Shown here piece by piece: positions 37,360 to 42,413 of a DNA stretch of 64,000 nucleotides. Below the pieces are notes generated by a model that was not told the DNA's origin, ran no database searches, and saw nothing but the letters and a program-made list of their open reading frames with translations. The stretch's first letter is position 1. The number at the start of each line of letters is the position of its first letter. The DNA is taken from positions 46,354 to 110,353 of the forward strand of contig JACPAV010000009.1 of the NCBI GenBank assembly GCA_016180645.1, written 5' to 3'. The DNA comes from Nitrospirota bacterium. Lineage in GTDB: Bacteria; JACPQY01. A program made the position numbers and the translations under genes.

Positions 37360-39342
37360 GTGGCCAAGTTCTTCGTCACTACGCCGATCTATTACGTCAA
37401 CGACGTGCCACACATCGGACACGCCTACACCACCGTCGCCGCAGATATCCTCGCCCGCTATCACCGGATGATTGGGGATGATGTCTTCTTCCTCACCGGA
37501 ACGGACGAGCACGGGAAAAAAGTGGAACACGCTGCCGCGAAGCAGGGAAAGAACGCCCGGCACCTTGCGGATGACGTCCACGTTCGTTTCAAGGAACTTT
37601 GGAAGACGCTCAACATCTCCAACGACCATTTCATCCGGACCACGGACATGGAGCACTACCATGCCGTGGCGGAATTCTGGGATCGCGCAAGAAAGAACGG
37701 CGACATCTTCCTCGGCGACTACGAGGGGTGGTATTGCACGCCGTGCGAAACGTTCTGGACGGAGAAGGAGCTTGTCCTCGCTGGAACTCTTCAGAGCGGG
37801 GGGATTAGCCCGACGACGGGCGCGATGATCGCTGAGCCTCAGGAACCGATCCTGTTGTGTCCAACTTGCAAACGCCGGACCGAGAAGCTCAAACAGCCAA
37901 GCTACTTCTTCAAGTTGGGGAAGTACCGAAGTTGGCTGCTCGACTATTTCAAGAACAACCCCGGCTCGATCCTTCCTGAGTCACGACGCAACGAGGTCCT
38001 GGGATTCCTCCAATCCGAGGAACTGAAGGACTTGAGCATCAGCCGCACGGATTTTTCCTGGGGCATCCCCGTCCCCGGCGATCCGAAGCACGTCATTTAT
38101 GTCTGGTTCGACGCCCTCATCAATTACCTTACCGCCAGTCACTACACGCCGGGCCGTGAATCGTCTTGGCCCGCAAGTGTCCATCTCGTCGGAAAGGACA
38201 TCCTCCGCTTCCACACGGTCTACTGGTTCGCGTTTCTGAAATCGGCCGGATTCCCGCCGCCGCAGTCGGTGTTCGCTCACGGCTGGTGGACGATCGACGG
38301 TCAGAAGATGAGCAAGTCGCTGGGCAACGTGATCGACCCTTTCGAGGTCACGGCGAAATACGGCGTGGACCCCTTCCGATATTTCCTCTTCAGGGAAGTG
38401 CCTTTCGGACAGGACGGCAACTACTCCAACCGGCTCCTGGAAGCCCGTCTCAATGGCGATCTGGCGAACGACCTCGGAAATCTTTTGAGTCGGGTGGTGA
38501 GTGTGGCCGTGCAGCATTTCCCGGCGGGAACCATCCGTGGGCCGCTCAACCACAATCCGGCCGCCCTGGGAGAATTGGGTACGCAACTTCTCGTCAAGCG
38601 GGAGAGAATGCGGAAGAAATGGCAGGAGGCGCTCCAAACTTTGAACCTCCAGGGCGCGCTGGAAGCGACGTGGGAGCTGCTCCGGGAGGCCAACGGTTAC
38701 GTCGACCGGACTCGGCCCTGGGAATTGAAAGGCAAGGAGAGCGGCACGCCCGTCCTTATTGAACTGTTGGAGACCCTGCGCCACGTGGCGATCTTCATCC
38801 AGCCGTTCATGCCGCACACATCGCAGGCCATCGGTCAACAAATCGCGGGCCGGGATTTCTTCGACGCCGCCAGTCGGCCCGCCGATTCGGCCTTCTCGAA
38901 TCTGGAGAGCAAGTATCCTCTCGAAAACGGATGTAAGATTGAAAAGGGGAAGCACCTCGTCGAGCGGATCGACCTGCTCCCCGAAAAGCCAAAGGAGAAC
39001 AAAGTGGAAGCAACCGACAACCTCCTCGGCATCGAGGAATTTCAAAAGATCGAACTCCGCTCCGGTGTCATCCTGAGCGCCGAAGAAGTGCCTAATTCGA
39101 AAAGACTCATCAAGCTCCAGGTTGATCTTGGAAACGAACAGCGGCAGGTGGTGGCGGGCATCAAGCACGTTTACACGGCGGCGGACGTGGTCGGCAAGAA
39201 AGTCGTGGTCGTCACCAATCTCAAACCGGCGAAAATCATGGGCGTGGAATCGCAAGGGATGGTGCTTGCGGCCAGCGAAGGCGACGCCCTCACGCTGGTC
39301 AGCTTCGACCGGGAGGTGAAGCCGGGGTGGAAGGTCAAGTAG
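37360..39342 (+). CDS. metG: methionyl-tRNA synthetase with C-terminal tRNA-binding domain
   Basis: 660 residues, GTG start. Class I signature P-H-I-G-H at about 17-21 and K-M-S-K-S at about 315. Two C-x2-C pairs (about 126 and 168) form the zinc knuckle. Residues from about 555 (E-E-F-Q-K-I-E-L-R-S-G-V-I...G-V-E-S-Q-G-M-V-L-A-A) form the EMAP-like tRNA-binding domain that dimerises MetRS. It charges initiator and elongator tRNA-Met. The next gene begins within its last codons. Confidence 0.97.
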   Translation: MAKFFVTTPIYYVNDVPHIGHAYTTVAADILARYHRMIGDDVFFLTGTDEHGKKVEHAAAKQGKNARHLADDVHVRFKELWKTLNISNDHFIRTTDMEHYHAVAEFWDRARKNGDIFLGDYEGWYCTPCETFWTEKELVLAGTLQSGGISPTTGAMIAEPQEPILLCPTCKRRTEKLKQPSYFFKLGKYRSWLLDYFKNNPGSILPESRRNEVLGFLQSEELKDLSISRTDFSWGIPVPGDPKHVIYVWFDALINYLTASHYTPGRESSWPASVHLVGKDILRFHTVYWFAFLKSAGFPPPQSVFAHGWWTIDGQKMSKSLGNVIDPFEVTAKYGVDPFRYFLFREVPFGQDGNYSNRLLEARLNGDLANDLGNLLSRVVSVAVQHFPAGTIRGPLNHNPAALGELGTQLLVKRERMRKKWQEALQTLNLQGALEATWELLREANGYVDRTRPWELKGKESGTPVLIELLETLRHVAIFIQPFMPHTSQAIGQQIAGRDFFDAASRPADSAFSNLESKYPLENGCKIEKGKHLVERIDLLPEKPKENKVEATDNLLGIEEFQKIELRSGVILSAEEVPNSKRLIKLQVDLGNEQRQVVAGIKHVYTAADVVGKKVVVVTNLKPAKIMGVESQGMVLAASEGDALTLVSFDREVKPGWKVK

Positions 39343-40799
39343 CCACGAGCCACGAGCCACGAGCCACGAGCCACGATTCCGCTCTGGCCGACTCCCACAC
39401 CCACCTCGTGATGTTCAAGCCCGAAGATCGGGCCGGCATTCTGGCCCGCGCCCGCGCACAGAACGTTCATCTCATGGTGGTGCCTGGGACCACACTTGCC
39501 GACAGCGCCGAGGCCGTCGAATTCGCCCGGGGGGAGCCGGATGTTTTCGCCACGGTTGGAGTTCACCCGCATGAGGCGAAGGACGCCCCCGCCGATCTGG
39601 AGGACCGCCTGACCGAGTGGGCCGGGGACGGCAAAGTGGCGGCGATCGGAGAAATCGGGCTCGATTTCCACTACAACCTCTCACCCAGGGATGTTCAACA
39701 GGCCTGCTTCGAAAGGCAACTTGCGCTCGCCCGGAAGGTCCGCAAGCCCATCGTCGTCCACATCCGCGAAGCATTCGGCGAAGCACGGGAACTGATGCAA
39801 GTCGGGCACGCTGACGAAGTCGGCGGCGTCATCCACTGTTTCACGGGAACCTACAACGATGCCAAAAGCTTCCTCGATCTGGGCTTCTGCATTTCATTCT
39901 CAGGAATCTTAACCTTCCCCAAGGCGGACTCGCTGAGGGAAGCCGCCCGGAAGATCCCGATCGAACGAATCCTCATCGAAACCGATGCCCCGTATCTTGC
40001 ACCGGTGCCCCACAGAGGAAAGGAAAATGAGCCGGCCTTTCTCCCGCACACCGCGCAGGTTCTAGCCGATCTGAAATCGCTGGCGATTCATGACGTCGCC
40101 CGGATCACCTGCGTCAACACCCGCCGCGTGTTCCGGATCGCCGAGGACGCGGTCCGCACAGCCGATGGTCGGTCCAAGGCGTGGCCAAAGCAAATCGATC
40201 TCCACCCGAAAATCGCCTACCGGATCCGGGACTCGGTCTACTTGAATATCACCAACAAGTGCACGATCTCGTGCGTGTTCTGCCCCAAGTTCGACGATTT
40301 CATGGTCAAGGGGCACTATCTCAAGCTCTCACGCGAGCCGGACGCGTCCACCATCCTCTCCGAGATCGGCGACCTCGCGGGCGTTCAGGAAGTCGTTTTC
40401 TGCGGATTTGGCGAATCCACGCTGCGGATGGATGCGCTCAAAGACACGGCGAGAGCACTCAAGGCGAAAGGCGTGAAAGTCCGGTTGGACACCGACGGCC
40501 TCGGCAATCTCGTCCACGGGCGAAACATTCTCCCCGAACTGAAAGGATTGATTGACAGTGTGTCCATCAGCCTGAATGCCTCGAATCCGGAAGAGTATGC
40601 CCGGCTCTGCCCTTCAAAGTACGAGGGAATCGCCTACCCTGCCGTCAAGGAATTCATTCGAGAAGCCAAGGTATGGATTCCCGATGTCCAAGCCACCGTC
40701 GTGACCGTGCCGGGTGTCAATGTCGAAGCCTGCCGGCGGATCGTAGAGGACGAACTCGGCGTCCGCTTCCGCGCCCGCGAATACAACAACGTCGGTTAG
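39327..40799 (+). CDS. TatD-type hydrolase fused to a radical SAM domain
   Basis: 490 residues if GTG 39327 is used. TatD part (about 20-272): D-S-H-T-H-L metal site, G-E-I-G-L-D, V-V-H-I-R-E, V-I-H-C-F-T-G and E-T-D-A-P-Y give all expected ligands of a metal-dependent DNase-like TIM barrel. Radical SAM part (about 300-490): N-I-T-N-K-C-T-I-S-C-V-F-C carries the C-x3-C-x2-C cluster (312, 316, 319) and E-V-V-F-C-G-F-G-E-S follows. TatD-associated radical SAM proteins usually are separate genes. The start lies upstream of a heptamer repeat and is uncertain. Confidence 0.88.
   Translation: MEGQVATSHEPRATSHDSALADSHTHLVMFKPEDRAGILARARAQNVHLMVVPGTTLADSAEAVEFARGEPDVFATVGVHPHEAKDAPADLEDRLTEWAGDGKVAAIGEIGLDFHYNLSPRDVQQACFERQLALARKVRKPIVVHIREAFGEARELMQVGHADEVGGVIHCFTGTYNDAKSFLDLGFCISFSGILTFPKADSLREAARKIPIERILIETDAPYLAPVPHRGKENEPAFLPHTAQVLADLKSLAIHDVARITCVNTRRVFRIAEDAVRTADGRSKAWPKQIDLHPKIAYRIRDSVYLNITNKCTISCVFCPKFDDFMVKGHYLKLSREPDASTILSEIGDLAGVQEVVFCGFGESTLRMDALKDTARALKAKGVKVRLDTDGLGNLVHGRNILPELKGLIDSVSISLNASNPEEYARLCPSKYEGIAYPAVKEFIREAKVWIPDVQATVVTVPGVNVEACRRIVEDELGVRFRAREYNNVG
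39342..39376. repeat. heptanucleotide tandem repeat (GCCACGA)x5
   Basis: Five perfect 7-bp units directly after the metG stop. They lie in the 5' part of the TatD-radical SAM reading frame. Because seven is not a multiple of three, a change in unit number would shift the frame between GTG 39327 and the TatD domain. Confidence 0.85.
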
Positions 40800-41638
40800 G
40801 GAGTCCCGACAGCGACAAATGAGAACCCCCCGGGCGGGTCTACTCCACGGCCGGCCGCATCAAGGAACTTTATTCGGAATCCGCTTCGGATGGCCATGAC
40901 CTTTGCCCGTACCGCCGGCGCCATCGATCCATCCAAGGGGCGAGTATCATCGGGCAAGCCTCCTATGTGGTCAAGAAAAGCTTTGGTGTTCGCAAGCTTC
41001 TCAGCTTCCAAGAACTGAAGGTTTTCCTGGAGAATGGATTCATCAACGAAACAGGGCCAATTCAAACACCACCGTTCTTCATCACCCGAGTTCTCAACCG
41101 GTATGGCGTACGCAACGAGCGGGCTATTGCGGGTTCTCGCCTCAGTTTTTCCAAACAATCCGGGTAGCGCCAAAGCGCTCGCTTCAGCCGTTAGGTATGC
41201 GCCCGTCCACTTTTGCCGCTTCTCGCCTGAGAGTAGCCCGGGAAGCGCTGAAGAAAGGAACACCCTTCGATCAGGGTCATCGAGAAAATCGCCAAGTCCG
41301 ATGCAACCACGCAGAGGAAATCGATCTTGAAAAGCTCGTTCCAACAGAAGTAAACAGGCAAATATGAAATTCCCAATGTTCTTGACGTCTTCTACGTGTT
41401 GCGAAACAAGAAGAATCGAGTCGAAAGCGATGAGGGTCTTCTCGAAATTCGACCGCACGTCCTTCCCCGTGCCATCCCGGGAAGAGGTTTGTGAACTGAA
41501 CACGTGGGCATTAGCGAAGTCAACGAATTTGCCGAACCGGGCGTGGAGATTCGGAAGCGACTCATTACACAGGCTCTGACCAAATCCCAAGATGTCAAAA
41601 AAACCGATGAGCCGATTCCTGAAAACTGCCACTTCCAT
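40796..41638 (-). CDS. orphan class III nucleotide cyclase-like protein
   Basis: 280 residues with no signal peptide. F-F-D-I-L-G-F (13-19), A-F-D-S-I-L-L-V (71-78), L-R-G-C-I-G-L-G-D (109-117) and W-T-G-A-Y-L-T-A-E-A-S-A-L (144-156) follow the order of landmarks in class III adenylate/guanylate cyclase-fold proteins. In that fold the two Asp (15, 73) bind metal. The substrate-specifying residues are not clear, so catalysis is uncertain. The gene overlaps the end of the TatD-radical SAM gene by 4 bp in convergent orientation. Confidence 0.55.
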   Translation of the reverse strand: MEVAVFRNRLIGFFDILGFGQSLCNESLPNLHARFGKFVDFANAHVFSSQTSSRDGTGKDVRSNFEKTLIAFDSILLVSQHVEDVKNIGNFIFACLLLLERAFQDRFPLRGCIGLGDFLDDPDRRVFLSSALPGLLSGEKRQKWTGAYLTAEASALALPGLFGKTEARTRNSPLVAYAIPVENSGDEERWCLNWPCFVDESILQENLQFLEAEKLANTKAFLDHIGGLPDDTRPLDGSMAPAVRAKVMAIRSGFRIKFLDAAGRGVDPPGGFSFVAVGTP

Positions 41639-41751: not shown

Positions 41752-42138
41752 TCATCCGAACGACACGATCCCTTTCCGGTCGTCGAACTCGACCTTGTAC
41801 CGGTTGAAAAACCCCTTCCGGCCAAGGAGGTTGAATCCGGCATGAAGATCCGGAGAAATAGCGATGGGCGCGGCAAATCGGTCTGGACCCAGTTGGATTT
41901 CAAGATCGTGGACAAAGAGCAGGAGTTCATGGCCAGTCGCGGAGCGCGAGTGACGCACCCTCCCTCTCCGATAGTCGAATTCCGCCGGGGCAAGATTCGC
42001 CGACAGGACGGTGTAGGCTGCGCCAGAGTCCACGTAGACATGGGCGGTCCGCCACTTCCCAGCGAGGTGGATGCCGATGGGGACTACCGGATGCGAATCG
42101 GAGCCAAGCTTGGCGTACGGGAAAGCAATACGAAGCAC
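41752..42138 (-). CDS. retropepsin-like aspartic protease
   Basis: 128 residues, GTG start. V-Y-V-D-S-G-A-A-Y-T-V-L holds the single D-S-G active site (Asp37), and F-N-L-L-G-R-K-G-F-F near residue 101 is the matching hydrophobic-Gly segment. Like retroviral proteases it would work as a dimer. It overlaps the upstream DUF5678-like gene by 55 bp. Such retropepsin/DUF5678 neighbours recur in many bacteria, but their function is unknown. Confidence 0.82.
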   Translation of the reverse strand: MLRIAFPYAKLGSDSHPVVPIGIHLAGKWRTAHVYVDSGAAYTVLSANLAPAEFDYRRGRVRHSRSATGHELLLFVHDLEIQLGPDRFAAPIAISPDLHAGFNLLGRKGFFNRYKVEFDDRKGIVSFG

Positions 42139-42413
42139 TTGATATCCTCTTCAGACGGAACCGAGACCAGGAGGGGAATGGCAGAAGGATGTTTTTTCTC
42201 GGCAGTTGAAATGGCTTCGTCAGCCGTCGCTCCGACGCCAGCGACGGCATGATCCACCACGGCAACGATCTTGTGGGGATATTGTTTGACGAGATCGCCG
42301 AAATGGGCGACAACCCACTTGTTCTCGTAGGTCAGGGCCCTTGTGAGTGAATCGAGTGGCCTTGTGTTTTGCGCGGTCGCTGCTTTTCTCCGCCCGTTCC
42401 GTCTTCTTCCCAT
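42084..42413 (-). CDS. DUF5678-like small protein
   Basis: 109 residues. The central Y-E-N-K-W-V-V-A-H-F, V-A-V-V-D-H-A-V-A-G-V-G-A-T-A-D-E-A-I-S-T-A-E-K-K and P-L-L-V-S-V-P-S-E-E-D correspond to the DUF5678 pattern. The first 30 residues are basic. It precedes and overlaps the retropepsin-like gene, so both are made from one transcript. Whether it is a substrate or inhibitor of the protease is a guess. Confidence 0.7.
   Translation of the reverse strand: MGRRRNGRRKAATAQNTRPLDSLTRALTYENKWVVAHFGDLVKQYPHKIVAVVDHAVAGVGATADEAISTAEKKHPSAIPLLVSVPSEEDIKCFVLLSRTPSLAPIRIR

What the first reader, a model, noticed from the sequence alone, without database searches (positions are those of the whole stretch)
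40796..41638. Orphan protein with class III nucleotide cyclase-like landmarks
Seen: F-x-D-I-L-G-F, A-F-D-S, L-R-G-C-I-G-x-G and G-A-Y in cyclase order. Known: cyclase-fold proteins make signals, including in antiphage systems. No effector gene is next to it. It could be a degenerate or divergent cyclase.
Basis: inference. Interest (0 to 1): 0.5.

Follow-up and report, generated by a model that had tools for sequence, protein, structure and literature searches.

The report
Solitary cyclase-fold protein, likely defence-type
This gene makes a protein with the fold of the enzymes that make cyclic AMP and cyclic GMP, keeping their metal-binding site but lacking other catalytic parts, and it belongs to an unnamed family of lone genes found on phages, plasmids and in bacterial anti-virus gene clusters.

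Summary
The ORF is real (40796-41638, minus, 280 aa). A full-length relative is 34% identical, and both belong to an unnamed family with no Pfam, NCBIfam or PADLOC match for P0001. Predicted models of it and of a family representative match class III adenylate/guanylate cyclases (best Z 14.5 and 15.6; all 50 listed rows each). In 37 aligned members the two metal aspartates (D15, D73) and R110-G111 are invariant; none has both transition-state Asn and Arg, and one has the base-binding Lys. So: a divergent cyclase-fold protein with a kept metal site, not a canonical cyclase. No constant partner gene was found in 39 loci. Relatives often lie beside defence genes: 122 PADLOC models matched among 63 flanking proteins, 1 among 60 control proteins. 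One relative directly follows a Panacea antitoxin; a published Panacea-paired prophage toxin with predicted cyclase similarity blocks transcription. I read P0001 as a horizontally acquired, solitary toxin- or defence-type nucleotide enzyme, although it lies outside a defence island itself. Fold: about 0.97; role: about 0.5; chemistry undetermined.

The parts
40796..41638 (-). Gene for the 280-aa cyclase-fold protein (P0001), stop included
   Evidence: full-length homologue 34% identical; GC3 0.56 against 0.70-0.79 for the seven + strand genes measured nearby
41048..41638 (-). Class III cyclase-like domain, residues 1-197
   Evidence: model; range aligned to class III cyclases
41594..41596 (-). 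D15, first metal aspartate (F-F-D-I-L-G-F)
   Evidence: 37 of 37 members (15 of these rows were found with a pattern that holds this Asp)
41420..41422 (-). D73, second metal aspartate (A-F-D-S)
   Evidence: 37 of 37 members; opposite the GD of class III cyclases
41306..41311 (-). R110-G111, invariant pair at the strand that reads R-[IV]-G-I in many cyclases
   Evidence: 37 of 37 members; alignment
41228..41242 (-). P133 to S137: place of the cyclase transition-state Asn (here Pro) and Arg (here Ser)
   Evidence: Asn in 2 of 37, Arg in 2 of 37, both in 0 of 37; eight own-genome class III domains read: Asn 7 of 8, Arg 8 of 8
41201..41209 (-). W144-T-G146, mark of the subgroup (at the last position Gly in 13 rows, Arg in 22, Ile in 2)
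41057..41071 (-). W190-C-L-N-W194, W-C-[LV]-N-W in the two nearest relatives
40997..40999 (-). K214, conserved lysine of the C-terminal helix
   Evidence: Lys in 34 of 36 rows with a residue there
40799..41047 (-). C-terminal part, residues 198-280; pLDDT under 50 over 228-261 and 265-280
   Evidence: similar C-terminus in L183 and in the G147 remnant

Best explanation
The gene encodes a solitary, metal-dependent nucleotide enzyme on the class III nucleotidyl cyclase fold. It keeps the half of the site that holds the metal ions (D15, D73) and an invariant arginine (R110) likely to hold phosphates, and lacks the residues that stabilise the cyclisation transition state and the usual base-binding Lys. 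It was probably acquired horizontally and belongs to a mobile family whose members probably act as growth-arresting toxins or defence enzymes: on a trigger they convert or consume a nucleotide and stop the cell or the phage, without a dedicated effector gene. Shown here: gene, family, fold (by prediction), conservation pattern, presence on plasmids and phage contigs, defence neighbours of some relatives. Inferred: metal-NTP binding, catalysis, toxicity, defence role, and that P0001 behaves like its relatives.
For: Fold: model of P0001 pLDDT 71.6, pTM 0.72; best 3et6_B, Z 14.5, all 50 listed rows adenylate/guanylate cyclases; Foldseek 3et6_A E 3.6e-5. Family model L121 pLDDT 83.2, pTM 0.85, Z 15.6, all 50 listed rows cyclases. 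hhalign against seven class III domains: probability 95.4. D15, D73, R110, G111 in 37 of 37; K214 in 34 of 36. Acquisition: GC3 0.56, one copy in its genome, no match in the only other genome held of the phylum, 84% complete, nor in its 10-kb metS-TatD stretch. Context of relatives: PADLOC models GajA, GajB, BrxL, PglZ, RT_III-A, restriction and methylase enzymes; 122 models in 63 flanking proteins of 17 loci against 1 in 60 control proteins of 15 stretches; one directly after dsr1 on a plasmid; one 101 bp from a portal gene that adjoins a gpP-like terminase, the side on which P2-like phages carry defence genes (PMC9122126, passages); one 2 bp after a SocA_Panacea gene, and a verified prophage PanT toxin, also paired with Panacea and with HHpred cyclase similarity, mainly blocks transcription (PMC8832971, passages and section 9).
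Against: No activity was measured. P0001 itself does not lie in a defence island but between TatD-radical SAM and NADH dehydrogenase genes, and no Panacea match was found among the neighbours scanned. By my eye many of the 17 genomic relatives also sit among ordinary genes, and several plasmid ones beside metal-resistance, conjugation or replication genes. The published toxin was not compared directly with this family; that it belongs here is inferred. P0001 lacks a feature that nearly all relatives share (Ala in 35 of 37 rows where it has L135). All 15 viral rows were found through the DILGF motif, and 13 of them were picked by eye for the other landmarks too, which inflates conservation there. 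The A3 profile of P0001's own subgroup found only one weak cyclase (E 2.4) among PDB sequences.
Confidence: 0.5

Rival explanations
1. It is an active nucleotidyl cyclase after all: family-specific residues (such as R110 and K214) replace the missing Asn, Arg and Lys, and it makes a cyclic mononucleotide, toxic itself or sensed by effectors encoded elsewhere.
For: Fold and metal site. A class III cyclase with Ala in place of the Asn is active (Ma1120, PMC4215837, passages). Pyrimidine cyclases use other base-recognition residues (PMC11224242, passages) and are among the Foldseek matches (8jsz_A, 8jsf_A). The authors of the Panacea-paired toxin suggest a toxic cyclic nucleotide (PMC8832971, passages).
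Against: Not only Asn but also Arg is gone (0 of 37 have both), and no constant effector neighbour was seen in 39 loci. Section 9 on that toxin reports ppGpp, GTP and ATP but no cyclic nucleotide.
Confidence: 0.22
2. It is a non-catalytic nucleotide-binding regulator, or a half-site partner that pairs with host class III cyclases and alters their activity.
For: It keeps only the metal/phosphate half of the site. Its genome has 11 PF00211 matches that could be partners. A solved 'class III adenylyl cyclase-like ATP-binding protein' is among the structural matches (6yii; title only).
Against: Invariance of both metal aspartates in very diverged, mobile genes argues for chemistry. Host cyclases of other carriers were not checked.
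Confidence: 0.18
3. The landmarks are chance and the protein has another fold or is not a gene.
For: No hit in Pfam, NCBIfam or PADLOC even at E 10.
Against: all point to a real gene of this fold.
Confidence: 0.02

Closest known systems
Class III adenylate/guanylate cyclases (Pfam PF00211; solved structures such as 3et6, 5o5k)
   Same: Fold over residues 1-197, two metal aspartates, order of elements.
   Different: Lacks the Asn/Arg transition-state pair and the base-binding Lys; has an extra C-terminal part; no Pfam hit at E 10.
PHROG families phrog_23933 and phrog_21097 (unknown function)
   Same: All 10 viral relatives scanned hit phrog_23933 (E 1.3e-9 to 2.1e-65) and 8 of 10 hit phrog_21097, so these hold part of the same family.
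   Different: P0001 itself does not hit them; no function is given.
Panacea-paired prophage toxin with predicted cyclase similarity (PanT of phi52237, PMC8832971)
   Same: As published: no CDD homology, HHpred cyclase similarity, paired with a Panacea antitoxin in a prophage; family member L105 is also paired with Panacea on a phage contig.
   Different: P0001 has no Panacea neighbour; direct sequence comparison was not made.
Pycsar pyrimidine cyclases (PycC)
   Same: Cyclase fold in a defence setting; 8jsz_A and 8jsf_A are among the Foldseek matches.
   Different: Pycsar pairs the cyclase with a receptor/effector (PMC11224242, passages); none was found here.

Membership tests
Class III nucleotidyl cyclases | Cyclase fold | tested here: met
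   Z 14.5 to 3et6_B, 172 residues at 3.6 A; 50 of 50 listed rows are cyclases; predicted model
Class III nucleotidyl cyclases | Two metal-binding aspartates | tested here: met
   D15 and D73, 37 of 37 members, aligned with the class III pair
Class III nucleotidyl cyclases | Transition-state Asn and Arg | tested here: not met
   P133 and S137 in P0001; both residues in 0 of 37 members; Asn alone is dispensable in Ma1120
Class III nucleotidyl cyclases | Base-specifying Lys (or Glu) before the second Asp | tested here: not met
   Leu in P0001; Lys in 1 and Glu in 1 of 37 members
Class III nucleotidyl cyclases | Match to Pfam PF00211 | tested here: not met
   no Pfam family at E 10; 11 other places in the genome do match
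Class III nucleotidyl cyclases | Makes a cyclic nucleotide | not testable with these tools
   needs an enzyme assay
Pycsar | Cyclase next to a receptor/effector gene | tested here: not met
   neighbours scanned; no constant neighbour in 39 loci
Pycsar | PADLOC model match | tested here: inconclusive
   no PADLOC hit for P0001 at E 10; whether the library holds PycC models of all clades was not checked
Panacea toxin-antitoxin systems (PanAT) | Adjacent Panacea antitoxin gene | tested here: not met
   no SocA_Panacea among the neighbours scanned with Pfam; phmmer with the L105 Panacea protein finds no other copy in the window or 46 further loci at E 0.01 (diverged copies could be missed); L105 itself meets it
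GGDEF diguanylate cyclases | GG[DE]EF motif | tested here: not met
   second aspartate lies in A-F-D-S

The most novel reading that the evidence does not exclude
A large, unnamed family of solitary defence or toxin enzymes uses only the metal/phosphate half of a class III cyclase site for a reaction other than classical cyclisation, giving a new toxic nucleotide product or removing a nucleotide, and works without a dedicated effector; P0001 is a chromosomal branch of it in a little-known phylum.
Probability: 0.3. Interest if true: 0.75.

Novelty: new variant of a known kind. Interest (0 to 1): 0.5.

Why it matters
Cyclase-fold proteins are central to signalling and to several anti-phage systems. 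Here is a family seen in 17 of 290 sampled genomes (own included) and in 56 plasmid records, called 'hypothetical' in every annotated row of the 40 listed, with a consistent loss of half the cyclase site and a link to defence genes. It gives concrete genes and residues to test, and may connect a published prophage toxin of unexplained mechanism to a whole family.

Tried and rejected
Close-relative scans with P0001 found nothing in genome contigs, viral contigs, plasmids or phages, and 0 of 97 other genomes; scans with the two-row alignment A2 found nothing, nor did L183 in plasmids. The pattern scans left 163 places to look at; I kept 13 as family members by eye (L047 was printed and dropped; my first regular expression flagged only 5).

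A dedicated effector or constant partner: rejected. In 39 loci the widest shared neighbour cluster covered 5 loci (single linkage).

A clean empty site: not shown. In the sister genome metS-TatD is followed by a gene that I recognise (recall) as prs, but the rest of the region differs too.

GGDEF, unrelated fold and chance: rejected (membership table, rivals). BFVD gave one match under E 0.001, a Harvfovirus response regulator at 5.1e-6, then a Faunusvirus guanylate cyclase domain at 1.7e-3. phrog_11845 (E 0.1) and parathion hydrolase (E 0.73) are taken as noise. No promoter-like site was found just upstream of the gene; one lies before DUF5678, so a three-gene operon is possible but unshown.

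That L105 is the published phage toxin: not shown; a search of the phage records with L105 gave no match. Which flanking protein matched which PADLOC model cannot be read (25 of 122 models are shown); many models hit the same proteins.

Literature: the motif search listed 5 unrelated papers; two searches listed none that, by title and abstract start, names this family; searches found no paper. The library is partial, so this is no proof of absence.

Full report
What is there. The ORF 40796-41638 (minus) encodes 280 aa with the named motifs. Its stop overlaps the stop of the convergent TatD-radical SAM gene. It has one copy in the 4.7-Mb genome and no match in the only other genome held from the phylum, which is 84% complete. 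Its GC3 is 0.56, against 0.70-0.79 in the seven + strand genes measured and 0.60-0.67 in the two minus-strand genes beside it. This suggests horizontal acquisition; it is an inference.

Finding the family. Library scans gave nothing or noise. A profile of these 13, P0001 excluded, scores P0001 at E 2.9e-11 among 999 shuffles. The A1 profile, which includes P0001, matched 19 of 290 diverse genomes. Two of the 19 (L188, L190) are canonical class III cyclase domains as I read their sequence, itself a sequence link; 17 are family, G000 included. L183 from G139 is 34% identical to P0001 over 271 aa. A2 matched 4 of 192 genomes, two of them known already, and in a phylum-wide sample only G147 of 398. 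In G147 only a remnant of the C-terminal half is left, beside an Arm-DNA-bind domain and a DUF6088-like protein below cut-off. Two phage relatives came (L195, L196). L121 matches 56 plasmid records; of 40 listed rows 38 read 'hypothetical protein', 1 'hypothetical conserved protein', 1 has no annotation.

Fold. AlphaFold2 on P0001 with 15 viral relatives: pLDDT 71.6, pTM 0.72, with a confident core and a poor C-terminus. VIA-align: 3et6_B Z 14.5, rmsd 3.6, 172 aligned; all 50 listed rows are adenylate or guanylate cyclases. Foldseek: 3et6_A E 3.6e-5. The representative L121 gives pLDDT 83.2, pTM 0.85, Z 15.6. Profile-profile comparison with seven class III domains (chosen with Asn and Arg present, two of them the L188/L190 matches) gives probability 95.4 and a co-linear alignment. 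A profile search of PDB sequences gives weak but repeated adenylate cyclase matches, best 5o5k_A E 0.039, below a spurious short match to Ika4 at E 0.01; the subgroup profile A3 gives only 1yk9_A at E 2.4.

Active site. Over 37 members (15 viral, 4 plasmid, 17 genomic, P0001): D15 37, D73 37, R110 37, G111 37, E139 34 of 37; K214 34 of 36. At the place of the transition-state Asn there is Asn in 2 of 37, of the Arg in 2 of 37, both in 0; Lys four before the second Asp in 1 of 37. As a control, eight of the eleven PF00211 domains of the same genome have, as I read the alignments, Asn 7, Arg 8, Lys 8 of 8, and an Arg at the R110 position in 4 of 8. So the family keeps a metal site and has made the Arg invariant while losing the transition-state pair and the base Lys. 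From memory, this is the complement of the C1 half of mammalian adenylyl cyclases, where the corresponding Arg contacts phosphate; no call shows that. Caveat: the viral rows were chosen by the motif, 13 of them also by eye; the 21 plasmid and genomic rows were found by profile or tblastn.

Subgroups. A tree splits the family in two (97/89): 13 rows with Gly and 24 with Arg (22) or Ile (2) at the position of G146. P0001 pairs with the G139 protein (100/100) and next with the two phage proteins L195/L196 (91/80); the tree tool warns of long branches there.

Context. P0001: TatD-radical SAM, a retropepsin-like match below cut-off, DUF5678, a protein without Pfam match and NADH dehydrogenase chain 3. 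Family: no constant partner in 39 loci. But 63 proteins flanking 17 genomic members match 122 PADLOC models at E 1e-10, among them GajA, GajB, BrxL, PglZ, RT_III-A, restriction and methylase enzymes; 60 control proteins from 15 stretches of the same genomes match 1. The models are redundant, so this is not 122 proteins, and many loci look ordinary. By reading, Gabija-like and BREX-like genes flank one member, L210. On plasmids, one member follows dsr1, another lies among AbiEii, PP2C, AAA ATPase and UvrD-helicase genes; others sit by integrase, toxin-antitoxin, metal-resistance, conjugation or replication genes. On phage contigs L152 and L105 lie 101 bp and 2 kb from a portal gene that adjoins a terminase gene. 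P2-like phages carry defence genes between gpA and gpQ, the portal (PMC9122126 and PMC9519451, passages); gpA was not identified here. L195 is inserted between head genes.

The toxin clue. L105 starts 2 bp after a SocA_Panacea gene (59.5 bits, cut-off 25.7); no other copy was found by phmmer in 46 further loci or the window. PMC8832971 (passages and section 9) verified a prophage PanT toxin, paired with Panacea, without CDD homology but with HHpred similarity to adenylate and guanylate cyclases; it mainly inhibits transcription, raises ppGpp through RelA, slightly lowers GTP and leaves ATP unchanged. It probably belongs to this family; this is inference from its description. P0001 has no Panacea neighbour, so it would be solitary or controlled otherwise.

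Verdict. The protein is a divergent class III cyclase-fold protein that fails membership tests for a canonical cyclase and for Pycsar. It works, most likely, as a metal-dependent nucleotide enzyme of toxin or defence type; the reaction is open.

Noticed in passing
window 39327-40799 (+): TatD DNase and radical SAM domains are fused in one 490-aa protein; it is kept in the sister genome G001 at 67% identity.
   Followed up: partly
window 41752-42138 and 42084-42413 (-): A retropepsin-like protein (below Pfam cut-off) and a DUF5678 protein overlap just upstream of the gene; a second DUF5678 match lies elsewhere in the genome.
   Followed up: partly
whole genome G000: Eleven PF00211 class III cyclase matches in 4.7 Mb, several in long proteins. 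Only two genomes of its phylum are held.
   Followed up: partly
L105 510-1972: Panacea antitoxin gene followed after 2 bp by a family member on a phage contig, a candidate toxin-antitoxin pair.
   Followed up: yes
L210 4544-13301: A family member lies between genes that read like Gabija (gajA, gajB) and BREX (brxL, pglZ), models that one search reports among the neighbours.
   Followed up: partly
L192 1420-2000 (-): Remnant with only the C-terminal half of a close relative of P0001, beside an integrase-like and a DUF6088-like gene.
   Followed up: partly
L222 4995-5846: Plasmid family member directly downstream of the defence sirtuin gene dsr1.
   Followed up: no
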